Assembly (NCBI GenBank): GCA_023384575.1
Contig: JAHDVP010000016.1
Location: forward strand, 63,144 to 100,417
Reading direction: 5' to 3'
DNA length: 37,274 bases
Source of the DNA: Acidobacteriota bacterium
GTDB taxonomy: Bacteria; Acidobacteriota; Vicinamibacteria; Vicinamibacterales; JAFNAJ01
A program made the position numbers and the translations under genes. Positions 11,753-27,037 of this stretch are shown in pieces. Each line of letters begins with the position of its first letter. Within the stretch, counting starts at the first letter, position 1. The notes below the pieces were generated by a model. It did no database searches and was not told the origin of the DNA. It saw only the letters and a program-made list of their open reading frames with translations.

Positions 11753-11771
11753 GCGGGCTCCAAGGAGGGGG

Positions 11772-11840
11772 CAGGCTGCAGGCTACAGGCTACAGGCTGG
11801 ACCGTCGAACAGCCAACAACCAACAACCAACAACCAACAA
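11772..11840. repeat. Two adjacent heptanucleotide arrays: CAGGCTR x4 and CCAACAA x4
   Basis: CAGGCTG, CAGGCTA, CAGGCTA, CAGGCTG lie at 11772-11799 and four perfect CCAACAA units at 11813-11840, continuing loosely as CCACCAC. Both have period 7 but unrelated sequence. They occupy the leader region of the minus-strand reductase gene, behind the amidohydrolase stop codon. Confidence 0.88.
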
Positions 11841-11896
11841 CCACCACAGACCACTGACCCCGCCGATCGCCCCTCCGCTACTGCCATCGGCGCCGC

Positions 11897-13111: not shown

Positions 13112-13724
13112 CCCTCCATTGTGCCCGTCCTGGCGCCCCTTGGCTCGCGCGGCGTGGCGTTCAGGTCACTGCTGCTGAGCGGAGGCACGCTGCTGGTCTG
13201 TCGTGCCACGCGTGGTCACGACGGCGAGCTGCAGCCGAATGAAGGTGCCGTTGGCGCAGAGTATCGGCTGGTCAGGACCAGACGGGCGGGCTGTTGAAGA
13301 AGTGAACGGTTGCGTAACCACAACGTCCGCCTGAGCTTGGCCGACCGAATGGGCCCCGCGCGCCCGGCGGGGATCTTGCTTCTTGTGGTCGGCAGTCGGC
13401 CCTGTGCCGCGCCCCCGACCCGGACGACGTGCGAGACAAGTTCCGTCGAGCCGTCCGTCGATGTCGACGCGTGCTCCTCCGAGGAGTCCGTGTCTCCAGG
13501 TCGCGTGGGCCGGCGTTCCGCCCCCCGCCCGAACACCCCACACGACACCAGGCCGCCCGAGCCGGCGGTCGCCAGTCGTTCGTGGCGCACCCCTGCGCAG
13601 GCCGGAGCCTCAGGCCATCGGTTGCGGCCGGCGTTGCACCACGGGCGTCCAGCGCTCGTATCGCGGGACACCGCGCGCGACGGCGCCCGCGTCACGTCCT
13701 CGCGCAGCAAGGAGGAGTCGTGCG
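13112..13724. other. Intergenic region of 613 bp, no convincing gene
   Basis: This region separates divergent genes. Several frames are open by GC bias alone, but they lack family features, plausible ribosome sites and normal residue composition. Visible structure is a near-palindrome GGTTGCGTAACC at about 13307-13318, in a slightly AT-richer stretch that could be a promoter or operator. A strong AAGGAGGAG at 13709-13717 belongs to the PEP-CTERM gene. A decayed gene cannot be excluded. Confidence 0.5.
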
Positions 13725-14420
13725 ATGAGAACGCTCTGCAGGGTGGCGCTGGCCGTGGTGTTCACCGGCACGCTGGCCACCAGCACTCACGCGGCGATCA
13801 TCTCGCCCTTCGAGATCGCCTTCAACGTGAACGGCACCGTTCAGAGCACCCTTGACGGGCCCTTGCCGGGGACGCTCCCTGGCTCATGGGATTTCACGGC
13901 CTTCGATTTGACGACGGGCCTCGGCGTCATTTCCGTCACGCTGACCGACGCGGGTGACTACTCGCTGCGCGGCTTCTTCGACTACGAGATCGACGAAGCG
14001 GAGAACACCTTCTTCAACGAGTTCGCCGAGGCGATGGGCGTTGCGCCGGGCGGGCTGTCGTGGGAGATCGACGAGCCGGGCTACGTCTTCGGCGACATCT
14101 TCACGAACTTCGCCGCGGGCGCTCTCGACAACACGAACGCCGTGCCGGCGGCGTCGCCCGAGGACGTCGCGGTGGCCCTCGGCTGGCTGTTCGCGCTCGC
14201 GCCGGGAGAGAGCGCGCTCATCCAGTTCACGATCTCGCAAGTCGCGCCTGGCGGCGGCTTCTACCTCGTGCACACCGACCCTGATTCGCTGGTGGGACCG
14301 GCCAGCGTCTACTACTCGACGAGCCTGACCGTCCGCAGCGAAGGGGTGGCCGAGCCGTCGTCGATCCTGCTGCTCGGCCTCGGCCTGCTGCTGGCCGGCC
14401 GGCGCTTCCGCCGCGTCTGA
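13725..14420 (+). CDS. PEP-CTERM sorting-domain protein
   Basis: The 231-residue secreted protein has a signal peptide at residues 1-24 (ending STHAA) and a beta-rich body. The C-terminus is a textbook PEP-CTERM anchor: VAEPSSILLLGLGLLLAGRR followed by FRRV, that is the Pro-Glu-Pro variant AEP, a hydrophobic helix and an Arg-rich end. Such proteins are cleaved by exosortase and released or attached at the surface, often with exopolysaccharide production. No exosortase gene lies in this window. The body is rich in Phe, Asp and Gly (for example YEIDEAENTFFNEFAEAMG) and matches no family I recognise. The ATG at 13725 has AAGGAGGAG upstream, so the start is secure. Confidence 0.88.
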   Translation: MRTLCRVALAVVFTGTLATSTHAAIISPFEIAFNVNGTVQSTLDGPLPGTLPGSWDFTAFDLTTGLGVISVTLTDAGDYSLRGFFDYEIDEAENTFFNEFAEAMGVAPGGLSWEIDEPGYVFGDIFTNFAAGALDNTNAVPAASPEDVAVALGWLFALAPGESALIQFTISQVAPGGGFYLVHTDPDSLVGPASVYYSTSLTVRSEGVAEPSSILLLGLGLLLAGRRFRRV

Positions 14421-14487
14421 GCCGCCTGCGGCTCCGACGCCCGTCCCGACGCGAGCCCGGCTCGCTCACGTCGAGGTTTGCACCCGC

Positions 14488-14501
14488 GGGGCGCGCGCCC
14501 C
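14488..14501. terminator. Perfect GC palindrome downstream of the PEP-CTERM gene
   Basis: GGGGCGCGCGCCCC lies in the 150-bp gap between the PEP-CTERM and PKD genes, among several smaller inverted repeats. It may end or stabilise the PEP-CTERM mRNA. There is no U-tract, so confidence is low. Confidence 0.3.
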
Positions 14502-14570
14502 GTGCGGCTGGTGTGCCGGCGACCCGCCCCCGCCGGCGACACGATCGTCATCGGACAGGAGATGAACAAG

Positions 14571-17063
14571 ATGCGCAGGCACGCTGGTTGGATCGGCGGG
14601 CTGGCGTCGCTGGTGCTGGCAGGCACGCTCGTGCTGCCGACGCCCGCGCTGGCCCAGGCCCCGGTAGTCAAGACCGTGCCGTGGGTCGCGACGAATCCTC
14701 TCATTCCACACGACATTCTGAGTGGGCGGCAGACCCGGCTGAAGGGCACCTCGAGCCTCCAGGGTGCGGCGATCACCTACGTGTGGGATTTCGGCGACGG
14801 CTCGCCCGTCGCGAGCGGCACCGTGAGCAACGGGTACGTCGTCGAGACGACGCACGTCTACACCGGCCTCCCCGGGACCATCTTCACGGCCCGCCTCACC
14901 GTGTGGAACGGCGCCGATTCGGCGACGAGCAACTACTACGTGCAGCTTCGCGAGCCGTCGCTCGACGTCGAGGTCAACATCGCCATCGACGAAGGGCTGT
15001 GGTACCTGCACAAGAGTCTGTATCGGTATGCCTCGGGCACCGTTCCGGTCGGCTACTGGAACGCGAGCCCGGTCGGGTCGAGCTGGGTCACGATGACCGC
15101 GGCCAACGTCAACGCGTTCCTCGTCAACGGGCACCTCGAGACGGGCGACGCGTCGAACCCCTACGTGGAGACCGTCCAGCGGGCCATGGGGCACGTGTTC
15201 GCCAACCTGGCGGCGACGACGATTCCCGCATCCCAGACGAACCCGGAGGGTACCTTCAGCCCCGACGGGAACGGCAACGGCTACGGCGTGTACGTCCCAC
15301 AGAGCAGCAGCTACGTCATCTACCAGGGCGGGCCCGTCATCGACGCCATCGTGGCGACCGGTACGCCGAATCGCCTCACGGTGACCGGTCCGGCACCTTC
15401 CGGCACGAACCCCGGGATCCTCGGCCGGACCTATCAGTCGATCGTACAGGACATGATCGACTACTTCGGCTATTGCCAGTACGACTCGGGCTCGGGGGCA
15501 GGCGGCTGGCGGTACACGTGTAATTCGTTTCCGGACAACTCCGCCGCCCAATGGGCGGCGATCGGCGCGCTCGCGGCGCACAAGGGGTTCGGCATCGATC
15601 TGCCCCTGCTCGTGAAGCTGTCCAACCTGAACCAGTGGCTCACCTACAGCCAGAACGCGACAACGGGCGTCTTCGGGTACACGAACACGAGTCCCATCTG
15701 GGGTCCCTACGCGACGACTCCCTCCGGCATGGTGCAGCTCGCCATGGACGGCGTGGGCCGGGGCCATGCCAAGTGGGACAGGGCCGAGACGTTCATGCGG
15801 AACAACTTCTGCAACACGGGCGGGGCGACGTTGGCCGTGCGCGACTACTACTACGGCCTGTTCGCGCTCGTGAAGGCGATGCTCCTGCACGACTCGGACG
15901 GCGATGGCCTCGCCGAGCCGCTCACGGAGCTTGGCACGATCGACCCCATCGACTGGTACCACGCGGAGGTCTCGCACGGCGATCCGTGTGACGGCGTCGC
16001 GCGCACGCTCGTCGGCGACCAGAACGCCGCGGGCTACTGGTACGGCCACAACTACGACGGCACGCAGTACCTGCTCGAGACGGGCTGGGCGATCATGATG
16101 CTCAGCCGCACGATCTTCGAGTCGGGCTCGCCCGTGGCGGTCGCCTCCGCCACGCCCAACCCCGCGGTGGTGGGCCAGACGGTGACTTTCTCGGGTACCA
16201 CGTCGTTCCACCAGGATGCCTCGAAGGTCGTCGATTCGTGGGCGTGGCAGATCTGCAAGACCCCCGGCGCGACCATCGCCACCTGCGCTGACCTCGAGAC
16301 GCAGTCCGGCCCCGAGGTCTCGAGCGCCTTCGGCGCGCTCGGCACCTACCAGGCCCGGCTCACGGTGACCGACGACAGCGTGCCCGAGAAGAGCGCGTCG
16401 ACCGTCGTCACCGTGCTCGTGTCGATTCCGCCCCTTGCGCCGACGGCCGATGCCGGCGGCCCGTACTCGTTCTGCCCGTCGGCGACGCCGTGGTTCCTGA
16501 ATGGAACGGGCTCGGTGAACCCGGACGATGGCGTGTCGGAGCCCGGGCAGCCACCCGACTTCATCACGCAGTACGCGTGGGATCTCGACGGAGACGGCGC
16601 CTTCGACGACGCCTTCGGGCCGCAGCCCGACGTGACCTCGTTCTTCGGCAGCCTCGGCGCTGGCAGCCATCTCATCCAGCTGCGCGTGACCGACAACACC
16701 GCCACGTCGTTCCCGAGCAGCCAGCAGCCGGATCTGACCGACACCGACAGCGCCCAGGTGTTCGTCCGGGCGGCCTCGGATCCGGCGTGCACGTGCATTC
16801 AGAACCTCTCGGCCCGACCGAAGCCCGGCAAGGCCGACCTGACGTGGGCCGCCTTTTCCGGTGCGGCGTTCTACCACGTCTACCGGTCGACCGTGAGCGG
16901 GGGGCCGTACCTCTACCTGGGCCGGGTCTCGGGCACCGTGTTCGCCGACATGGGCCCGCTGACCAACGGCACGACCTACTACTGGGTGATCCGTCCGACG
17001 CTCGCCAATCTGACCGAGCTCTGTCAGTCGAATCAGGCGTCGGCGACGCCGAGGACCCGCTGA
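14571..17063 (+). CDS. Large secreted PKD / toroid / fibronectin III protein
   Basis: The protein has 830 residues with a signal peptide ending LPTPALA at residues 19-25. Domains in order are a PKD domain (TYVWDFGDG, about 65-115), an alpha/alpha-toroid-like region (about 120-500), a second PKD-like domain (from VAVASATPNPAVVG), a third with AWDLDGDGAFDDAF, and a C-terminal fibronectin III domain (ADLTWAAFSGAAFYHVYRS). The toroid region has QWAAIGALAA, NQWLTYSQNATTGVFGY and GYWYGH, recalling squalene-cyclase or prenyltransferase repeats. It is probably an extracellular binding or degradative protein. Two ATGs compete. The one at 14562 touches AGGAG directly, whereas the one at 14571 is 9 bases away, so I prefer 14571. 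No C-terminal anchor is seen. Confidence 0.85.
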   Translation: MRRHAGWIGGLASLVLAGTLVLPTPALAQAPVVKTVPWVATNPLIPHDILSGRQTRLKGTSSLQGAAITYVWDFGDGSPVASGTVSNGYVVETTHVYTGLPGTIFTARLTVWNGADSATSNYYVQLREPSLDVEVNIAIDEGLWYLHKSLYRYASGTVPVGYWNASPVGSSWVTMTAANVNAFLVNGHLETGDASNPYVETVQRAMGHVFANLAATTIPASQTNPEGTFSPDGNGNGYGVYVPQSSSYVIYQGGPVIDAIVATGTPNRLTVTGPAPSGTNPGILGRTYQSIVQDMIDYFGYCQYDSGSGAGGWRYTCNSFPDNSAAQWAAIGALAAHKGFGIDLPLLVKLSNLNQWLTYSQNATTGVFGYTNTSPIWGPYATTPSGMVQLAMDGVGRGHAKWDRAETFMRNNFCNTGGATLAVRDYYYGLFALVKAMLLHDSDGDGLAEPLTELGTIDPIDWYHAEVSHGDPCDGVARTLVGDQNAAGYWYGHNYDGTQYLLETGWAIMMLSRTIFESGSPVAVASATPNPAVVGQTVTFSGTTSFHQDASKVVDSWAWQICKTPGATIATCADLETQSGPEVSSAFGALGTYQARLTVTDDSVPEKSASTVVTVLVSIPPLAPTADAGGPYSFCPSATPWFLNGTGSVNPDDGVSEPGQPPDFITQYAWDLDGDGAFDDAFGPQPDVTSFFGSLGAGSHLIQLRVTDNTATSFPSSQQPDLTDTDSAQVFVRAASDPACTCIQNLSARPKPGKADLTWAAFSGAAFYHVYRSTVSGGPYLYLGRVSGTVFADMGPLTNGTTYYWVIRPTLANLTELCQSNQASATPRTR

Positions 17064-17127
17064 CGGCCGGGGCGGACCACCGTCCGCCGGCCGCACGTAT
17101 CGGCCGGGCGCACTGATGCGCCCGGCC
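17064..17127. terminator. Two tandem GC-rich hairpins after the PKD gene
   Basis: The first hairpin at about 17064-17093 pairs CGGCCGGGGCGGAC with GTCCGCCGGCCG, with a 2-base bulge. The second has perfect 11-bp arms, GGCCGGGCGCA (17102-17112) and TGCGCCCGGCC (17117-17127), around a CTGA loop. They start right after the stop codon. They are good candidates for a transcript end or an attenuating barrier before the next gene, although no clear U-run follows. Confidence 0.6.
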
Positions 17128-17182
17128 CCGTGGTTTCGCCCGGGGGCCCCCGCCTGGCATGCGTCGATTCCTGGAGGGCCTC

Positions 17183-17809
17183 ATGCAGCACCATCCGCCC
17201 CTGGTGCTCGTGACTGCACCGTTCGTTCTGCTCCTCGTCCTTCCCCTGGCCTCGTCGACCCCACCGGCCGCAATCCACGGCCGGTGGGTTGGCGAGATGC
17301 GCCTGCCCAACTCGCACGCCCCGCTGCCCCTGCTCCTCAAGCTCAACGAGACCGACGGCCGCGTCGACGGCACCGGAGGGCCCAACGACGACACGCAATA
17401 CCCGCTCGAGGACGTGGCGTGCGCCGACGGCCACCTGCACGCCGTAATCCGAGCGCCAGGCGCGGACGAAGACACGTTCGTGCTCGATCTCGACGTTGAC
17501 GGCGACACGCTGGTCGGCCGCGTGACGCTGCAGAACCGACACGGCATGTGGCGCGGACGGGCGGAGCTCGCGCGCCGCGCGGTCGGCACCCGAACCGACC
17601 CGGCCGGCTGGTACGGCCACGCTCACTCCTGCGGGCACGCAAGCGGCTGTGGTCACGCGAGCTGGTGCGGCCAGGCGGACGGGTGCGGCCATGCGAGCTG
17701 GTCTGGCCAGGCGGACTGGTGTGGACACGCCGGCCATTGCGGCCACGCGGACGGCCCGCGGAGAGCGGGCCGACACCACGCGCACGGCGAAGGGCACGGC
17801 CGGCGATGA
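17183..17809 (+). CDS. Secreted protein with C-terminal CGHA hexapeptide repeats
   Basis: The protein has 208 residues. Residues 1-29 form a signal peptide (LVTAPFVLLLVLPLASSTPP). Residues 31-133 look like the small beta-barrel domain that precedes secreted alpha/beta hydrolases in Acidobacteriota (IHGRWVGEMRLP, DVDGDTLVGRVTL), here without any hydrolase. Residues 142-189 are eight tandem hexapeptides with consensus xxCG(H/Q)A, holding six Cys and seven His, and the tail is again His-rich (GRHHAHGEGHGRR). Such Cys/His density suggests metal binding; this is inference. The ATG at 17183 is chosen over 17159 because TGGAGGG lies 5 bases before it. The stop overlaps the ATG of a TonB-dependent receptor (ATGA), so the two are made together. 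I know no named family for the repeat part. Confidence 0.8.
   Translation: MQHHPPLVLVTAPFVLLLVLPLASSTPPAAIHGRWVGEMRLPNSHAPLPLLLKLNETDGRVDGTGGPNDDTQYPLEDVACADGHLHAVIRAPGADEDTFVLDLDVDGDTLVGRVTLQNRHGMWRGRAELARRAVGTRTDPAGWYGHAHSCGHASGCGHASWCGQADGCGHASWSGQADWCGHAGHCGHADGPRRAGRHHAHGEGHGRR
17606..17749 (+). repeat. In-gene 18-bp tandem repeat, 8 units
   Basis: The repeat encodes GWYGHA, HSCGHA, SGCGHA, SWCGQA, DGCGHA, SWSGQA, DWCGHA and GHCGHA. Units differ mostly at third codon positions within the conserved Cys, Gly, His and Ala codons (TGC/TGT; GGA/GGC/GGG/GGT; CAC/CAT; GCA/GCC/GCG), so the peptide is kept while the DNA has drifted. A 36-bp higher-order period (SWxGQA-DxCGHA) is also visible. 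Confidence 0.88.
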
Positions 17810-20800
17810 GACGGCGCGCGTGGGTGGTCATCGGGCTGGTCGCCCTGGGCGCCGTCCCCTGCCACGCGCAGGTGGGCGGCACCCTGCTCGGCGTCGTGCA
17901 CGACCCGCTCGCCCAGGCGGTCGCAGGCGTCGAAGTGGTCGCCGAGTGCGCCGAGCGCGGCGTGGTCCGCCGCACGGTCACCGACGAACTCGGACGCTAC
18001 CGGCTCGTCGGCCTGCCGCCGCTCGTGTACGTCGTCCGCGCGTCGACTCCCGGTTTTGCCGTGGCCCGTCGGACCGGGGCGGTCGTCGCCGTCGACTCGA
18101 CCCGCCGCATCGATTTCGTGCTCGAGATCGAGGGCATCACCCAGTCGATTGACGTCGAGGCCCCCGTGCACCTCGTTCAAGCCGACACCGCAGACCTCGG
18201 TCTCGTCGTCGGTCGGCGCCGAATCGAGACCCTCCCGCTGAATCGTCGCGACTTCCTGCACCTGGCGTTGCTCGCCCCGGGCGTGGCCTCACCGGTCGAG
18301 GGCTCGGAGCTCTCGAGCCGCGGCGCGTTTGCGATGCACGCCAACGGCGGCCGCGAGGAATTCAACAACTACCAGCTCGACGGCGTCGACAACAACGACC
18401 CGTACGTCAACCGCTACGTCGTGCAGCCGGCGGTGGACGCGATCGAGGAGTTCAAGGTCGCCACCAATGCCTATGGCGCCGAGTACGGCCGCAGCGCGGC
18501 CGGGCAGGTGAGCGTGGTCACCCGCGGTGGGGCGAGTCGCTTCGAGGGCTTCGCGTACGAGTACTTCCGCGACGAGGCATTCGATGCCCGCAATGCGTTC
18601 GACGACGGGCAGCCCGCGCCATTTCGTCGCAACCAGTTCGGCGTCGGCGCCGGCGGGCCGCTCGTTGCCGGGCGCGCGTTCGTCTTCGGGAGCGTCGACG
18701 TGCTCGGCGAGCGCCAGGCCCAGATCCGGTTGGCGCAGGTTCCGACGGCGGCCGAGCGGGCGGGCGATCTTTCGGCCCTCGGGCGCGTCATCGTCGACCC
18801 GCTCACGGGTCAGCCCTTTGCGGGCAACGTGATTCCCGCCGACCGCCTTTCGCCGATCGCGCAGCAGATCCTGCGGGCGTTTCCGCTCCCCAACCAACCC
18901 GGGCCGATCAACTACCTTGGCCGGCCGCTCGGCCGCGAGGGCCAGCGGCAGGGACACGTGCGGGTCGACGTGACCGCGGGTCCGCGCGATCGGCTCATGG
19001 CGCGCTACAGCCAGGGCCACGTGTCGGCCTACGAGCCGTATGCCGAGGACTCGGGCACGGTACCGGGGTTCGGCGACGAGGTCGCCGATCGTTCACTCAA
19101 CGGCGCGGCGGAACGCCAGCACGTGATGGGCAACTGGGGGGTGATGACGACCCGCCTCGGCTACTCCCGCCTGCGCCGAGACCTCCGCCCCGAGAACCAC
19201 GCGGCCGACGTCGGGGCGGCGTGGGGCGTCGACTGGCTCGACGTGCCCGCGCGCGCCAGGGGGTACCCCGCGATTGCCATCGCGGGCCTCTCGCGCATCG
19301 GCGACACCATCAGCCTGCCCATCCTGCGGCGGGCCCGGACGTGGCACTTCGTGCAGACGCTGGCCATCGACCGCGGGCCGCACCTCGTGAAACTGGGCGG
19401 CGAGTGGCGTCACGCGCGCCTCGACGGGACGCTCGACATGCTGACGCGAGGCTCGCTGTCGTTCTCGGGCGCGCTCTCGGGGACCGGGCTGAGCGACCTG
19501 CTCCTCGGCCTGCCATCGTTTGCCCTGCAGGCCAGAGCCGACAACCCGATCCACCTGCGGTCGACCGCCTTCGGCGTCTTCGTGCAGGACGACTGGCGGC
19601 TCACGAGCGCGCTGACCGTGAACGCCGGGCTCCGATACGAGCTCGCCTCGCCGCCGGCCGACCCGTCGAACGCGATGGCGACCTTCGACCTCGTCTCTGG
19701 CCGACTGGTGCCGGTCGGAACGGCTGGCGTCACGGCGTCAGGCGTACGCGCCGACTGGAACAACGTGGCGCCGCGGCTCGGCGTCGCCTGGAGCCTCCGG
19801 CCCGACACCGTCGTGCGCGCCGCGTACGGCCTGTTCTTCGACAGCGGCTCGTTCATCGTCAACTCGGCGCAGTACTTCAACCCGCCCTACTTCACGCTGC
19901 GGGCGTTCTTCCCGGTGCCGGGGCGGCTGCTCACGCTCGACGATCCGTTCCCGGCGACCGGCGGACTGTCGCCGCCCGCGACGCTCAGCGTGCTCAACCC
20001 CGACCTCGTGGCCGCGTCGATGCACCACTGGAACGTGGCCGTGGAACGGGCGGTTGACGGGTGGGGCACAGCGCGCGTGGCCTACGCCGGTTCGCGCGGC
20101 CTGCACTTGACCCAGGCTCGCGACCTCAATCAGCCGGAGCCCGGCGAGGGGGCCGTGCAGGCGCGGCGGCCTCATCCAGCCTACGGGAGCATCTTCTTCA
20201 TCGACAGCCGGGGTACGTCGACCTACCACGCCCTGCACGCGAGCTTCGACCGTCCGCTGGCGCGCGGCTGGTCCATCGTCGCGGCCTACACGCTGTCGCG
20301 TTCGATGGACGAGAACTCGGCGCTGCTCGACACGACGTCCGATCCCAACATGCCGCAGGACTCGCGAAACCTGCACGCCGAGTGGGGGCCCTCGAGCTTC
20401 GACGTCCGCCATCGCGCGACCATCGCGCTCGGCGTGGAGTTGCCGCAGCAGTGGGGGCTCACGCGCAACACGAGCGTCAATGCGATCGGCACGTTCGAGT
20501 CGGGGCGCCCGCTCACGCCGGTCCTGCGGTTCGACAACAGCAACACGGGGAACACGGGATCGACCTCGGGATCCGATCGACCGAACCTGGTCGGCTCTCC
20601 GGCGCTCGACCACCCGACCGCCGCGCGCTGGTTCGACACGACGGCCTTCGCCGTCGCGCCGCGCTACACCTTTGGCAACGCGGGGCGCAATGTCGTGCGG
20701 GGGCCCGGCTTCGTGTCGGTCGACGTGTCGGTTGCGCGGCACGTCGCGCTGTCGTCGGGCCTGCGTCTCGTGTTCGAGGCGCAGGCGTTCAACGTGCTCA

Positions 20801-20916
20801 ACCGCGTGAACTACCGCCTGCCCGAGAAGTACGTCGACGAGGTCGCGAGCTTCGGTCGCATCTTCTCGGCCAGGGCGCCGCGGCAGGTGCAGCTGGTCGT
20901 ACGCCTTCAGTTCTGA
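17806..20916 (+). CDS. TonB-dependent receptor, Oar-like, with carboxypeptidase-regulatory-like domain
   Basis: The 1036-residue outer-membrane protein has a signal peptide ending PCHAQ. Residues 25-110 form a carboxypeptidase-regulatory-like beta-sandwich (GVVHDPLAQAVAGVEVV, TDELGRYRLVGLPP). A plug domain follows, with RRRIETLPLNRRDFLHLALL and the highly typical NYQLDGVDNND and EYGRSAAGQVSVVTRGG, and then a large beta-barrel. The end, RQVQLVVRLQF, has the terminal aromatic residue expected for BAM-dependent insertion. Such proteins import large or complexed substrates with energy from TonB; the ligand is unknown. The start ATG overlaps the stop of the CGHA-repeat gene by 4 bases, so co-translation with that secreted protein is likely and may point to its ligand. 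Confidence 0.92.
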   Translation: MRRRAWVVIGLVALGAVPCHAQVGGTLLGVVHDPLAQAVAGVEVVAECAERGVVRRTVTDELGRYRLVGLPPLVYVVRASTPGFAVARRTGAVVAVDSTRRIDFVLEIEGITQSIDVEAPVHLVQADTADLGLVVGRRRIETLPLNRRDFLHLALLAPGVASPVEGSELSSRGAFAMHANGGREEFNNYQLDGVDNNDPYVNRYVVQPAVDAIEEFKVATNAYGAEYGRSAAGQVSVVTRGGASRFEGFAYEYFRDEAFDARNAFDDGQPAPFRRNQFGVGAGGPLVAGRAFVFGSVDVLGERQAQIRLAQVPTAAERAGDLSALGRVIVDPLTGQPFAGNVIPADRLSPIAQQILRAFPLPNQPGPINYLGRPLGREGQRQGHVRVDVTAGPRDRLMARYSQGHVSAYEPYAEDSGTVPGFGDEVADRSLNGAAERQHVMGNWGVMTTRLGYSRLRRDLRPENHAADVGAAWGVDWLDVPARARGYPAIAIAGLSRIGDTISLPILRRARTWHFVQTLAIDRGPHLVKLGGEWRHARLDGTLDMLTRGSLSFSGALSGTGLSDLLLGLPSFALQARADNPIHLRSTAFGVFVQDDWRLTSALTVNAGLRYELASPPADPSNAMATFDLVSGRLVPVGTAGVTASGVRADWNNVAPRLGVAWSLRPDTVVRAAYGLFFDSGSFIVNSAQYFNPPYFTLRAFFPVPGRLLTLDDPFPATGGLSPPATLSVLNPDLVAASMHHWNVAVERAVDGWGTARVAYAGSRGLHLTQARDLNQPEPGEGAVQARRPHPAYGSIFFIDSRGTSTYHALHASFDRPLARGWSIVAAYTLSRSMDENSALLDTTSDPNMPQDSRNLHAEWGPSSFDVRHRATIALGVELPQQWGLTRNTSVNAIGTFESGRPLTPVLRFDNSNTGNTGSTSGSDRPNLVGSPALDHPTAARWFDTTAFAVAPRYTFGNAGRNVVRGPGFVSVDVSVARHVALSSGLRLVFEAQAFNVLNRVNYRLPEKYVDEVASFGRIFSARAPRQVQLVVRLQF

Positions 20917-20960
20917 GCGTGAAACAGCAGGGGAGACTCTGTCGCTCTGGACGGTGAGCC

Positions 20961-22673
20961 ATGAGCGAGGTGAAATGGAAACGATCCGGGCGGTGGCGAT
21001 GCTGGATCGCCGGCGTCCTGGCCCTCGGGTGGTGGCCGATCGGGTCCGCAGCCGCGACGGATCGACCCGTGTTCGTCCAGCTCGTGCTGAACGTCGACGA
21101 TCACGTGAACCACGAACTGAACGAAGAGCGCCTGCGCCGCACGCTCGACCTCGTCGAGCGCCTGCGCCGTGAACCGGCGGGCCGTGACCTCTCGTGCCTG
21201 TACTTGTTCACGGGCGCGAGCGCCGCCACGCTCGTCGAACGCCGATCGAACGGGCTCCACGACGCCCTGCGCGAAGCGGTGCGCGCGGGCCACGCCGAGA
21301 TCGGCTACGACGGCAGCGAGGAGCCGACGCCGGCCTCGCGGCCGCGTCCCAACTTCCGATCCGCGCGAAGCCCCGCCGACCGCTGGCGCGCCCGCATCGA
21401 GGTGCTCGAGTGGTTCCTCTCGGAGGGCCGGCACTTCGTGACCGGCGAGCCCGATCCGACGACACGAGGAGGGTTGGCGAGCTTCGTCGAGGTGTTCGGC
21501 CCGCCCGCTGCGTTGTGGGGAGCGAACCTCGATGTCGGTGTCGACCCGGAGCTCTCGCACCTGCTCGATCGTCTGGGGCTCGACCCGCTGCTGCCTGGCC
21601 TGCCACCGCGCGACGTGCCGCCGGCGCGTCACCTCCATGGCTACCGCGGCAACGCCACGATGTTCGCGACGCTCATCGCTCCGGCCCAGGACACGGCGCC
21701 CGAGCTCTTCTGGCTGAATCACCGGCTGCATCTGTCCGACTACACCGGCGAAGGCACCGGGGTGGTCGTGGCCCACCGCGGCGTGCCCGCGTTCGAGGAG
21801 CTCGTCGCGCGGCTCGACCGGACGCGCCCCCACGTCGTCCGCGTGCGCCTCGGCGCACCGGGCCTCGACACGCGCGTCGGCTTCGGCCGGCGCAACTACG
21901 TCACGCCGCTCGAATTCGCCTACGACAACCCGAGGGACATCCGGCTGCCCGACGACGCGCTGCTGGATCGCGCGACCGTCGAGGAGGGCTACGCGAGGCA
22001 GGACGCCCTGGTGCGCTGGGTGCTCACGACCTTCGTGCCGGCCAACCCGGGCAGCGGCTTCGTGAGCGTCGCACGCCTGCGCGAGATGGCCGGGCCGGGG
22101 AACCCTCGTGTCGTTCGGCGCGAGGCCCTGCTCGCCTCCGTGCGGGACCTTCTCGACACGTGGCAGGCGCAGGGAACGTCTCCGCCCGACGGACTGCGTG
22201 TGGGCGACGAGGACCTGTCGCTGGCCGATCTGGTGGCCATCCTGACGACGGCCGTGGCCGGGCGCCGCGAGGAGACACGAACCGCTGGCGCGATCGTGGT
22301 GCCTCGGGTGTTCGGCCCGTTCGTACTCGGCGATGAGGGGGCTGTGGAGCCGTCTACCGTGACGGTCGGGGCGGTCGTCGCGGCGGCAGACGCTCTCAGC
22401 TCCCGCTTCGCCGAGACCGGCTGGCAGCCCGTGCCCGTGGCGATGGTGCCGGCGGCGGTGCGAGTGGGCGACGTCGAGGTCGATGCCGCGCAGTTCCTGC
22501 ATCTGGTTTGCGAGGCCGCGCTGGCCTCCGGCGACGACACGCGTCTGACGGTGCGCTCGCTCTCGATGCGCACGGCGCTCGGCGAGGCGCTGCCATCGAG
22601 CCGCGGCCGCGTCGAGACGGGCGCCGTGTGGACGTTGAAGCCTGCCCGGTTGCACTGGCAACCGGGCTCGTGA
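20961..22673 (+). CDS. Exported deacetylase-like protein with pseudomurein-binding-like repeats
   Basis: The 570-residue protein has an N-terminal signal or anchor helix (WIAGVLALGWWPIGSAAA). A domain beginning VFVQLVLNVDDHVNHELNEE (38-57) and containing FLSEGRHFVTGEPD resembles the NodB/polysaccharide-deacetylase barrel, although the metal ligands are not certain. From about residue 405 two segments resemble pseudomurein-binding repeats (PMBR): PDGLRVGDEDLSLADLVAIL and, at 496-521, VPAAVRVGDVEVDAAQFLHL followed by VCEAAL. It probably binds or modifies a surface polysaccharide. The gene is sandwiched between two TonB-dependent receptors, 44 bp and 15 bp away, all on the same strand. The ribosome site is weak. 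Function is inferred with limited confidence. Confidence 0.6.
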   Translation: MSEVKWKRSGRWRCWIAGVLALGWWPIGSAAATDRPVFVQLVLNVDDHVNHELNEERLRRTLDLVERLRREPAGRDLSCLYLFTGASAATLVERRSNGLHDALREAVRAGHAEIGYDGSEEPTPASRPRPNFRSARSPADRWRARIEVLEWFLSEGRHFVTGEPDPTTRGGLASFVEVFGPPAALWGANLDVGVDPELSHLLDRLGLDPLLPGLPPRDVPPARHLHGYRGNATMFATLIAPAQDTAPELFWLNHRLHLSDYTGEGTGVVVAHRGVPAFEELVARLDRTRPHVVRVRLGAPGLDTRVGFGRRNYVTPLEFAYDNPRDIRLPDDALLDRATVEEGYARQDALVRWVLTTFVPANPGSGFVSVARLREMAGPGNPRVVRREALLASVRDLLDTWQAQGTSPPDGLRVGDEDLSLADLVAILTTAVAGRREETRTAGAIVVPRVFGPFVLGDEGAVEPSTVTVGAVVAAADALSSRFAETGWQPVPVAMVPAAVRVGDVEVDAAQFLHLVCEAALASGDDTRLTVRSLSMRTALGEALPSSRGRVETGAVWTLKPARLHWQPGS

Positions 22674-22688
22674 GGGGCGGAGGGGGCG

Positions 22689-25484
22689 ATGCGGCGACAG
22701 GCGACGAGCAGGGCCCTTCCTCCTCGACCGCGCCTGCGTCGACCGGTTCTGGTCCGTGTCGCGCTGGCCTGTGCCGTCGCGACGCTCGCCGGGCCGACGC
22801 CCTGCGGGGCGGGTCAGGTCGCGGGACTCGCGGCTGAGGCTTCGACCGCCATCGTAGCGGCGTGCGTCGAGGGGCGTGCCGTGTACGGGCGCGTCACCGA
22901 CCAGTCGGGCGCCGCGCTGCCCGGCGCGCGCGTGGCGGTGACCGCGGCAAGCGGCGTCCTGCTCGACGAAGGTTCGACGGCGGCCGACGGGGCTTTCCAT
23001 CTGTGTGCGCCGGCCATCGACGTCGTCGTCACCGTCCGCGTCGACGGCTTCCGCGTGTGGCAGCGCGTCGTCGCCGGCGGCTGGCGGCAAAACGCCGGGC
23101 TCGCCGTGGTCCTCGCGATGCCGGGTTTCGGCGAGTCGATTACCGTGACGCCCGTGCGCGGCGAGGTGCGCTCCACGCGGTGGACGCCGGAGTTCGTGAC
23201 GAGCATCGGGCGCGACGCGCTCGACGCACGGGCAGGCGAGTTGCTCGCCCTGCGCCTGCGCGTGGACGCCGGCCTGCACGTCCAGCAGACGTCGACGAGC
23301 CAGACGTCGCCGTACGTCCGCGGGCTCACGGGGCAGCAGGTGGTGACGCTCGTCGACGGCGTCCGGTTCAACACGGCCGTGCTGCGTCCAGGCGCGAATC
23401 AGTACACGGCGCTGCTCGACGCCGTCGTCGCCGAGCGCGTCGAAGTGGTCCACGGGCCGAACGCCACGCAGTACGGCACCGATTCGCTCGGCGGCACGAT
23501 CAACCTCATCACGCCCGCCGCCGACGGGTGGCGTGCGCGCCGTGCGGGCGGGCAGGTCGGCCTGACGGCCACCTCCGCCGACCGCGGTGCGGGTGGATCG
23601 GTGACCGGCGGCTGGTCGACGTCGCGGGTGACGGCCTTCGGACACGTCAGCGCGCGCAGCGCCGACGATCTGCGGGCCGGCGGCGCGCGCGATTCCCATT
23701 CGGTCGTCACGCGGCTCTTCGGCCTGCCCTCGTCGCTGCTCGGCGACCGGCTCGCGGCCACCGGCTATCGCCAGGCCGGCGCGAGCGCGAAGGCCATCGT
23801 CCGCGCGGGCGGCCACCACGTCATGACGGCGAGCTACCTCGGGGGGCACCAGGCCGGGGCCAGCCGCTACGACATGCTCGACGGCGGTGCGGGCCATCTG
23901 CGTCACTTCTTCGACCCGCAGGATCTCGTCCTCGGCTGGGTGCGATACGACGGCGTCGACCTCGGGGCCGTGTCGACCCTCTCGGTCACGGCGTCGTACA
24001 ACGCGCAGCGCGACGACCGCGAGTATCAGAACGTCAACAACAGTCGAAGCGGGCTCGCGTCCGACGTCACGCGCGAGTGGAACCGCGTCGCCGCCGCCGG
24101 CACGCAGGTCGTCGCAGGCCTGAACCCGCATCCCCGGCACAGCCTGCGCGGCGGTGCCGACGTCTACCTCGAGCGCGTCGACGCGCGGCGCGAGGACCGC
24201 GCTCCGGTTGACGGCGCACCGGCCCGGATTGCCCGCGCGCGTCTGCCCGATGGGGCGCGCTACACGAGCGTCGGGGCCTTCCTGCAGGACGTCATCGACG
24301 TGCAGCCCGACCGCGTGCAGGCCCAGGTGGCCTTGCGGTACAGCCGGTTCGCGTATCGGCAGCGCGCGGCCGACAACCCGCAGGGACCTTCGGGGCCGCT
24401 CGTGCCCGATTTCTCGACGACGTTCGACGACCTCACGGGCAACGTCGGCGTGGTCGTCGCCCTCGGGCGGGGCCTGCACCTCACCGGCAGCATCGCGCGG
24501 GGCTTCCGGGCGCCCAACATGAACGACTTCGGGACCATCGGGCTGTCGGGCGGAGGCTTCGAGATCTCGCCAGACGAGGCGCAGGCCGTCCGGGCGAACG
24601 TCGAACTGCCGGGTTCGGGCGGGACGACGCGCGTGCCGGTCGGCCCGCTCGGGCCCGAGACGCTCCGCAGCTACGATCTCGGGCTCCGGCTCCAGACCTC
24701 GCATCTGTCGGCCGGCGTCGCCGTGTATCAGGCCGACGTTCGGGGCACCATCGAGCGACGGACCGCGCTGTTGCCGCCCGGGGCCGCAGGGATGCTCGTG
24801 GGTGGACAGCTCGTGCTGCGCCAGGACGCGAGCGGCGCCATCTACACGCCCGCGTCGTCGTCGGCGGTCTTCGTGCGGGTCAATGGCGCCGACATGCGGC
24901 TGCGCGGCATCGAGGCCTCGCTCGCGGGACACGCGGGCTCGCAGGTCAGCTGGAGCTGTCAGGTGTCGTCGCTGAGAGGCGAGAGCCTCGTCGACGGGTC
25001 GCCGCCGCCGGTGGAGAACGGCCTGCCGCCTGCGCACGGCAGCGCCTCGGTGCGCTGGACCACGCCGGCCGGCCGCCTGTGGATCGACGGCAGTCTCGTG
25101 TGGGCGGCGACGCAGACGCGGCTCTCGAGCAACGACCTGCGCCAGGCGCGCATTGGCGGCCTGCGGACCCGCGAAGAGATCCGCGACTTCTTCCAGAACG
25201 GCGCCGTCGCGCGCGGCCTCGTCGCAAACGGCCGGCTCGTCGCCACCGGCGAGACGCTCTCGGAGGTGATCGACCGCGTGCTCGACGACGCCGCGTCGGC
25301 GCCGCTCTACACCGAGCAGGCGGGCTTCGTCGTGTGGACGGCGGGCTTCGGGTGGCGGCTCTCGTCGCGTCTCCGAATGACGGTGCTCGTGGAGAACCTG
25401 CTCGACGCCAACTATCGCACGATGGGGTCGGGCATCGACGGCCCCGGGCGCGGCATTGTCGTGCGCCAGCACCTCGCGTTCTGA
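22689..25484 (+). CDS. TonB-dependent receptor with N-terminal carboxypeptidase-regulatory-like domain
   Basis: The 931-residue outer-membrane receptor has an Arg-rich start and signal helix (VLVRVALACAVATLAGP), a short beta-sandwich (VYGRVTDQSGAALPGARVAV), and a plug domain with LLALRLRVDAGLHVQQ, SPYVRGLTGQQVVTLVDG, VERVEVVHGPNATQYGTDSL and GGTINLIT. The barrel ends with the standard ENLLDANYRTMGSGIDGPGR and a terminal Phe. This architecture is nearer to classical siderophore, heme or vitamin receptors than the Oar-like protein at 17806. The ligand is not identifiable. The gene starts 15 bp after the deacetylase-like gene, so one operon from 17183 to 25484 is likely. It is followed directly by heptanucleotide repeats. 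Confidence 0.92.
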   Translation: MRRQATSRALPPRPRLRRPVLVRVALACAVATLAGPTPCGAGQVAGLAAEASTAIVAACVEGRAVYGRVTDQSGAALPGARVAVTAASGVLLDEGSTAADGAFHLCAPAIDVVVTVRVDGFRVWQRVVAGGWRQNAGLAVVLAMPGFGESITVTPVRGEVRSTRWTPEFVTSIGRDALDARAGELLALRLRVDAGLHVQQTSTSQTSPYVRGLTGQQVVTLVDGVRFNTAVLRPGANQYTALLDAVVAERVEVVHGPNATQYGTDSLGGTINLITPAADGWRARRAGGQVGLTATSADRGAGGSVTGGWSTSRVTAFGHVSARSADDLRAGGARDSHSVVTRLFGLPSSLLGDRLAATGYRQAGASAKAIVRAGGHHVMTASYLGGHQAGASRYDMLDGGAGHLRHFFDPQDLVLGWVRYDGVDLGAVSTLSVTASYNAQRDDREYQNVNNSRSGLASDVTREWNRVAAAGTQVVAGLNPHPRHSLRGGADVYLERVDARREDRAPVDGAPARIARARLPDGARYTSVGAFLQDVIDVQPDRVQAQVALRYSRFAYRQRAADNPQGPSGPLVPDFSTTFDDLTGNVGVVVALGRGLHLTGSIARGFRAPNMNDFGTIGLSGGGFEISPDEAQAVRANVELPGSGGTTRVPVGPLGPETLRSYDLGLRLQTSHLSAGVAVYQADVRGTIERRTALLPPGAAGMLVGGQLVLRQDASGAIYTPASSSAVFVRVNGADMRLRGIEASLAGHAGSQVSWSCQVSSLRGESLVDGSPPPVENGLPPAHGSASVRWTTPAGRLWIDGSLVWAATQTRLSSNDLRQARIGGLRTREEIRDFFQNGAVARGLVANGRLVATGETLSEVIDRVLDDAASAPLYTEQAGFVVWTAGFGWRLSSRLRMTVLVENLLDANYRTMGSGIDGPGRGIVVRQHLAF

Positions 25485-25498
25485 TGGCGCCGCGCCCT

Positions 25499-25600
25499 GA
25501 GCTCTGAGTCTTGAGCTTTGAGCATTGAGCTGTGAGCTCGGGGCTTTGAGCTGTCGTGTGTGCGGGCGCCTCTCGCTCATCGCTCACGGCTCAGACCTCA
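25499..25600. repeat. Heptanucleotide repeat arrays (GAGCTNT x8 and NNNCTCA x4)
   Basis: Eight units lie at 25499-25554: GAGCTCT, GAGTCTT, GAGCTTT, GAGCATT, GAGCTGT, GAGCTCG, GGGCTTT, GAGCTGT. After an 18-base spacer come TCGCTCA, TCGCTCA, CGGCTCA, GACCTCA at 25573-25600. All units are exactly 7 bases. The array starts 15 bases after the receptor stop codon. Confidence 0.9.
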
Positions 25601-26885: not shown

Positions 26886-27037
26886 GCGAGGGGCTGAAGC
26901 CCCTCGCGCTACGGAGGGACGGAAGCCCCTCGCGCTACCGGCTACCGAGGGACCGCCTCGCTGGGCCTCGTGCCGTAGCGCCGGGGCTTCAGCCCCGGCG
27001 GAGGCGGAGGGGCGATTGCGAGGATCTGAAGCCCCTC
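26886..27037. repeat. Cluster of four GGGGCTTCAGCCCC-type palindromes
   Basis: Perfect hairpins are GCGAGGGGCT/AGCCCCTCGC at 26886-26907 and GCCGGGGCT/AGCCCCGGC at 26980-26999. Half or degenerate copies lie at 26922-26937 and 27016-27037. Several carry the shared CTCGCGCTACCG or CGTAGCG tail. The block separates convergent genes (Gfo/Idh and CoA-binding) and begins 29 bases after the first stop codon. Confidence 0.85.

What the first reader, a model, noticed from the sequence alone, without database searches (positions are those of the whole stretch)
17183..20916. Secreted Cys-Gly-His hexapeptide repeat protein translationally coupled to a TonB receptor
Seen: a 208-residue exported protein with eight xxCG(H/Q)A hexapeptides (six Cys, seven His) plus a His-rich tail, whose stop overlaps the start of an Oar-like TonB-dependent receptor (ATGA). 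The synonymous differences in the conserved Cys, Gly, His and Ala codons indicate selection on the peptide. Known: Cys/His-dense tandem repeats usually bind Zn, Cu, Ni or Fe, and TonB receptors import metal complexes. Inference: the protein may be a secreted metal scavenger or metal-loaded carrier whose ligand is taken up by the receptor. I do not recognise a named family.
Basis: partly seen in the sequence, partly recalled or inferred. Interest (0 to 1): 0.75.

Follow-up and report, generated by a model that had tools for sequence, protein, structure and literature searches.

The report
Avidin-like exported protein with Cys-Gly-His tail
An exported barrel-shaped protein, made together with an outer-membrane transporter, carries in this one species a tail of repeated Cys-Gly-His units that selection has kept and that probably binds metal; its nearest relatives keep the barrel and the transporter but lack the tail.

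Summary
The 208-aa ORF (17183-17809) has a good Shine-Dalgarno, a signal-peptide-like start and an ATGA overlap with an Oar-like TonB-dependent receptor (17806-20916). It ends in eight 18-bp units encoding (x)(x)(C/S/Y)G(H/Q)A. In the G, H/Q and A codons all nine departures from consensus fall at codon position 3, so the peptide is under purifying selection.

Two results change the picture. Residues 27-136 fold (AlphaFold, single sequence) as an eight-stranded avidin-like/calycin barrel with a G-x-W start. The strong homologs, three among 162 genomes of the order, keep the barrel, the adjacent receptor and other cluster genes, but all stop right after the barrel. The Cys/His tail was found only in this genome. 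The receptor therefore cannot depend on the tail, and it shows no Cys/His enrichment suggesting coevolution.

Most likely this is an exported ligand-binding barrel of an Oar-type transporter cluster that gained a metal-binding repeat tail in this lineage. Metal binding is inference. A protein metallophore feeding the receptor is possible but unsupported; a methanobactin/bufferin-type RiPP is unlikely, because no MNIO enzyme is in the genome.

The parts
13383..14420 (+). ORF holding a PEP-CTERM-type exported protein (the true start lies inside the ORF); first gene of the conserved cluster
   Evidence: Sub-threshold PEP-CTERM matches; homologs at the matching place in G003 (49% identity), G023 (31%) and G019 (34%)
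14562..17063 (+). Secreted protein with PKD domains; part of the conserved cluster (start assigned by eye)
   Evidence: Pfam PKD; homologs at 46-77% identity in G003, G059, G023 and G019
17173..17177 (+). Shine-Dalgarno-like GGAGG, 5 nt before ATG 17183
   Evidence: sequence
17183..17809 (+). 208-aa exported protein (P0001)
   Evidence: homologs
17183..17260 (+). Signal-peptide-like N-terminus (hydrophobic core LVLVTAPFVLLLVLPLA, small residues after it)
   Evidence: read from the sequence; no signal predictor was available
17261..17590 (+). Eight-stranded avidin-like/calycin beta-barrel domain with G-x-W (G33, W35); the conserved part
   Evidence: AlphaFold2 on this stretch alone: pLDDT 76.5, pTM 0.72, eight strands; VIA-align Z 11-12, rmsd mostly 2.3-2.6 over 94-103 residues to designed barrels and avidins; alignment of orthologs
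17615..17758 (+). Eight 18-bp units coding the G-[HQ]-A-x-x-[C/S/P] hexapeptides
17752..17772 (+). Perfect 8-bp inverted repeat CGGCCCGC-GGAGA-GCGGGCCG inside the coding end, 33 nt before the receptor ATG
   Evidence: read from the sequence; it forms in the fold of the region; function unknown
17759..17806 (+). Basic His-rich end RRAGRHHAHGEGHGRR
17806..20916 (+). Oar-like TonB-dependent receptor (CarboxypepD_reg, Plug-like, PF25183 barrel); start overlaps the stop of P0001 (ATGA)
   Evidence: orthologs at 55-63% identity in G003, G023, G059 and G019
20961..22673 (+). 570-aa exported protein of unknown family, part of the conserved cluster
   Evidence: no Pfam, NCBIfam or PDB hit; orthologs in only 5 of 193 genomes of the class, the same ones that hold the receptor ortholog in the cluster
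22689..25484 (+). Second TonB-dependent receptor; best but sub-threshold similarity is to heme/hemoglobin receptors
   Evidence: Pfam; TIGR01785 149 bits against a cut-off of 317; homologs in G003 and G019

Best explanation
P0001 is an exported, small avidin-like (calycin-type) barrel that works beside an Oar-like TonB-dependent receptor, in a cluster that also encodes a PEP-CTERM protein, a PKD protein, a 570-aa protein and usually a second receptor. The barrel probably binds the substrate, or part of it, that this transporter handles. In this lineage only, the gene gained a C-terminal extension of 18-bp repeats before its stop codon. The extension was then kept by purifying selection as a flexible Cys/His-rich tail that most likely binds soft or borderline transition metals (Cu, Zn, Ni) or a metal complex. 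Shown: anatomy, conservation of barrel and neighbours, tail restricted to this genome, selection on the G, H/Q and A codons. Predicted: the barrel fold. Inferred: ligand binding by the barrel, metal binding by the tail, and physical work with the receptor.
For: The only strong homologs keep the order PKD protein, small protein, receptor, 570-aa protein. A stop-start overlap with the receptor is seen here and in G003. The barrel model and fold matches are clear. The tail is absent in all three orthologs and in the weaker family members checked. No array of this kind was found in 192 genomes of the class, nor at another place in this genome. Selection on the repeat peptide. Six Cys (150-186) and eight His (146-188) within 43 residues is a metal-ligand density, by general knowledge.
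Against: No metal-homeostasis gene is recognised in the window. The receptor has no Cys/His enrichment compared with its orthologs. In the array one Cys is Ser and two His are Gln, so the possible metal ligands are less strictly kept than Gly and Ala. Cys in an exported protein may simply be oxidised to disulfides.
Confidence: 0.5

Rival explanations
1. Protein metallophore (or hemophore): the tail collects metal or heme outside the cell and hands it to the Oar-like receptor.
For: Coupled genes, Cys/His density, and a second receptor in the cluster whose nearest, sub-threshold families are heme receptors. Known analogies: the secreted hemophore HasA with HasR (PMC6981324), and the fungal zincophore Pra1 with the syntenic transporter Zrt1 (PMC3386192).
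Against: Three orthologs have the same receptor and barrel without the tail, so the receptor does not need it. I know of no Oar-like receptor shown to import metal. No dedicated export system beyond the signal-like N-terminus was seen.
Confidence: 0.15
2. The Oar-like receptor exports or displays the small protein: the protein is the cargo rather than the carrier, as Oar is needed for PopC secretion in Myxococcus xanthus.
For: Oar of M. xanthus is required for PopC secretion across the outer membrane and crosslinks to it (PMC6434023). The receptor here has the CarboxypepD_reg plus barrel architecture. The small gene is coupled to it.
Against: PopC lacks a signal peptide, is a protease and shows no relation to this protein. 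In G019 a receptor ortholog stands without the small gene beside it.
Confidence: 0.15
3. The tail is a structural or disulfide-linked extension (oligomerisation, or surface attachment through the basic His-rich end) with no metal role.
For: Even number of regularly spaced Cys (6 or 12 apart) in an exported protein; Gly and Ala are the strictest positions.
Against: His/Gln at a fixed place and Cys beside Gly-His are not needed for a mere linker.
Confidence: 0.25
4. The array is a young DNA minisatellite that is merely tolerated in frame.
For: 18- and 36-bp tandem periodicity, restriction to one genome; CGHA-type DNA repeats occur elsewhere in unrelated, often short frames.
Against: All changes in the G, H/Q and A codons are at position 3, and synonymous sites are near saturation while the first two positions never change.
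Confidence: 0.08
5. The repeats are core peptides of a ribosomal peptide modified to a copper-binding product (methanobactin or bufferin kind).
For: Exported precursor with repeated Cys-Gly units; products of the known kind bind copper (PMC12538549, PMC13097082).
Against: No MNIO (PF05114) gene in this genome, whose completeness is given as 100, while 2 of 14 control genomes ring. No maturation enzyme was recognised beside the gene.
Confidence: 0.03

Closest known systems
Avidin/streptavidin family and other calycin barrels
   Same: Eight-stranded up-and-down barrel of about 110 residues with a G-x-W first strand; VIA-align Z 11-12 to bacterial avidins
   Different: Identity about 7-14%; no Pfam match; the avidin biotin-pocket residues were not checked; extra Cys/His tail
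Oar (Myxococcus xanthus) and Oar-like TonB-dependent transporters
   Same: CarboxypepD_reg domain, plug and large barrel
   Different: Substrate and direction of transport unknown here; the partner protein is a barrel with a signal-like N-terminus, not the protease PopC
HasA/HasR hemophore pair
   Same: Secreted carrier protein paired with a TonB-dependent receptor (PMC6981324)
   Different: No sequence match in the PDB searches; heme binding untested; tail not kept with the receptor
Pra1/Zrt1 zincophore pair of fungi
   Same: Secreted zinc-scavenging protein whose gene is syntenic with an importer gene (PMC3386192)
   Different: Different importer and organism, no sequence relation seen; here the tail is optional across orthologs

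Membership tests
Avidin family (biotin-binding) | Eight-stranded antiparallel avidin-type barrel | tested here: met
   Model pLDDT 76.5; Z 11-12 to avidins, tied with designed barrels. The fold is a common arrangement.
Avidin family (biotin-binding) | Sequence relationship to avidin (Pfam profile) | tested here: not met
   No Pfam-A family at E <= 1 for P0001; for the four-member alignment only one weak hit, to the unrelated DUF2249
Avidin family (biotin-binding) | Biotin binding | not testable with these tools
   needs a binding assay
Oar-like TonB-dependent transporter (the neighbour) | N-terminal CarboxypepD_reg, plug and Oar-type beta-barrel | tested here: met
   PF25183 688 bits and PF13620 57 bits, both above cut-off; PF07715 Plug 16.9 bits, below its cut-off of 23.9
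MNIO-modified copper RiPPs (methanobactin, bufferin) | MNIO enzyme (PF05114) in the genome, normally next to the precursor | tested here: not met
   no PF05114 match in the window's genome; rings in 2 of 14 controls
Metal-binding Cys/His-rich repeat protein | Repeated Cys/His ligands kept by selection | tested here: met
   but Gly and Ala are the strictest positions, with two His-to-Gln changes and one Cys-to-Ser
Metal-binding Cys/His-rich repeat protein | Measured metal binding | not testable with these tools
   needs purified protein
Protein metallophore with dedicated receptor | Metal-binding part conserved together with the receptor | tested here: not met
   three orthologous gene pairs lack the tail

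The most novel reading that the evidence does not exclude
A bacterial protein metallophore built by adding a Cys-Gly-His repeat tail to an avidin-like barrel, exported and returned, metal-loaded, through a translationally coupled Oar-like TonB-dependent receptor: a lineage-specific gain of a metal function by an older transporter cluster.
Probability: 0.12. Interest if true: 0.6.

Novelty: new variant of a known kind. Interest (0 to 1): 0.36.

Why it matters
The barrel domain has no Pfam or NCBIfam entry, and its coupling to an Oar-like receptor gives a candidate substrate-binding partner for a receptor class whose substrates are mostly unknown. The tail is a clean case of a repeat added to an older exported protein and then held by selection, in which natural tail-less orthologs serve as controls for a metal-binding test.

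Tried and rejected
Genome-contig search with P0001: no relative at E <= 1e-3. Genome-contig scan for a CGHAxxCGHA DNA pattern: 91 stretches scattered over unrelated phyla, many in short frames, none recognised as related. Viral-contig search with the alignment, and plasmids with the protein: none. PDB sequence searches with P0001, its alignment, the receptor and the 570-aa protein: nothing credible. The best phylum-wide barrel hits outside the cluster (G410, G453, G032) do not sit next to a receptor ortholog and are probably only the same barrel kind. An RNA-level role for the array was considered: the region folds somewhat better than shuffles (z -2.2), but the codon-position pattern points to the peptide. 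Three literature searches on Cys/His repeat tails or Oar-like receptors in Acidobacteria found nothing.

Full report
Observation. The ORF at 17183-17809 encodes 208 residues and its stop overlaps the start of the receptor at 17806 as ATGA. The start is supported by GGAGG five bases upstream. The tail holds eight 18-bp units from 17615 to 17758; TRF reports periods 18 and 36. Six of the eight G[HQ]A motifs follow Cys, one follows Ser and one Tyr; two have Gln in place of His. In the G, H/Q and A codons all nine departures from the consensus are at codon position 3, and the pooled dN is about one twentieth of dS. The two x codons are free (dN above dS). Composition does not produce the pattern: shuffles of the tail reach a run of at most three.

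What the protein is. P0001 has no Pfam or NCBIfam match. Predicted alone from its single sequence, residues 27-136 give an eight-stranded barrel with pLDDT 76.5 and pTM 0.72. Foldseek's best matches are a lipid-binding protein, lipocalins, the calycin-like Tp0751 and bacterial avidins, none at E <= 0.001. The second look by VIA-align gives Z 11-12, with rmsd mostly 2.3-2.6 over about 94-103 residues, to designed barrels and avidins. G33-x-W35, invariant among the orthologs, fits the G-x-W start of calycin barrels (general knowledge). So the conserved part is a small avidin-like or calycin-like barrel. The model of the whole protein leaves residues 153-208 at pLDDT under 50.

Relatives. In 162 genomes of the order only G003, G059 and G023 have strong homologs (E 1e-60 to 1e-63 with a profile built from them and the window protein). 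All three have the same neighbours: the PKD protein before, the receptor and the 570-aa protein after (in G059 the PKD gene is cut by the contig end). Their small proteins end straight after the barrel, with VTRLEKDVP, LDREKPKQTGKK and LNKEQPKENEKK. In G003 the stop and the receptor start overlap; in G059 and G023 a short gap lies between them. In G019 the receptor, PEP-CTERM, PKD, 570-aa and second-receptor genes are present, but no small-protein homolog was found in the 16 kb taken. The tail array was found in no other genome among 192 of the class, and there is no second array in the own genome. In 392 genomes of the phylum a looser two-unit pattern was found at one other place (G418); on the strand read it lies in no open frame of 60 or more residues that reads CGHAAHCGQA. 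The tail is thus best read as a lineage-specific gain between the barrel and the stop codon; only four genomes of the family are held, so its true spread is not known.

How it may work. The gene order and overlap argue that the barrel and the Oar-like receptor act together in these bacteria. Since three receptor and barrel pairs lack the tail, the tail is an addition to that work, not its basis. The receptor shows no Cys or His enrichment that might mirror the tail (2 Cys here; 1-3 in the orthologous frames). Regular Cys-Gly-His units with further His nearby make metal binding the likeliest role for the tail by general knowledge, but nothing in the window points to one metal. The second receptor's closest NCBIfam models are heme and hemoglobin receptors, well below cut-off; this is a hint at most. 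Oar of Myxococcus is needed for secretion of the protease PopC (PMC6434023), so an export role of the receptor must be kept in mind.

Known kinds. No MNIO enzyme was found in the genome, so a methanobactin- or bufferin-type RiPP is very unlikely. HasA/HasR and Pra1/Zrt1 are analogies of working, not relatives.

Verdict. What remains interesting is an undescribed barrel coupled to an Oar-like receptor, and a repeat tail gained and kept in one lineage.

Noticed in passing
17752-17772: Perfect 8-bp inverted repeat with loop GGAGA inside the coding end of P0001, 33 nt before the receptor start; it could affect translation of the receptor.
   Followed up: partly
20961-22673: 570-aa exported protein with no Pfam, NCBIfam or PDB match, found in only 5 of 193 genomes of the class, always with the Oar-like receptor and PKD protein.
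   Followed up: partly
13383-25484: Conserved cluster of PEP-CTERM protein, PKD protein, (small barrel protein), Oar-like receptor, 570-aa protein and second TonB receptor; in G019 the receptor stands at the front and no small-protein homolog was found.
   Followed up: partly
25498-25552: Heptamer minisatellite TGAGCTT, about eight copies, just after the second TonB receptor.
   Followed up: no
11771-11843: Two adjacent heptamer repeats (GCAGGCT about four copies, AACAACC about five copies).
   Followed up: no
26888-26938: Two near-identical 26-bp copies GAGGGACGGAAGCCCCTCGCGCTACG after the Gfo/Idh/MocA oxidoreductase gene.
   Followed up: no
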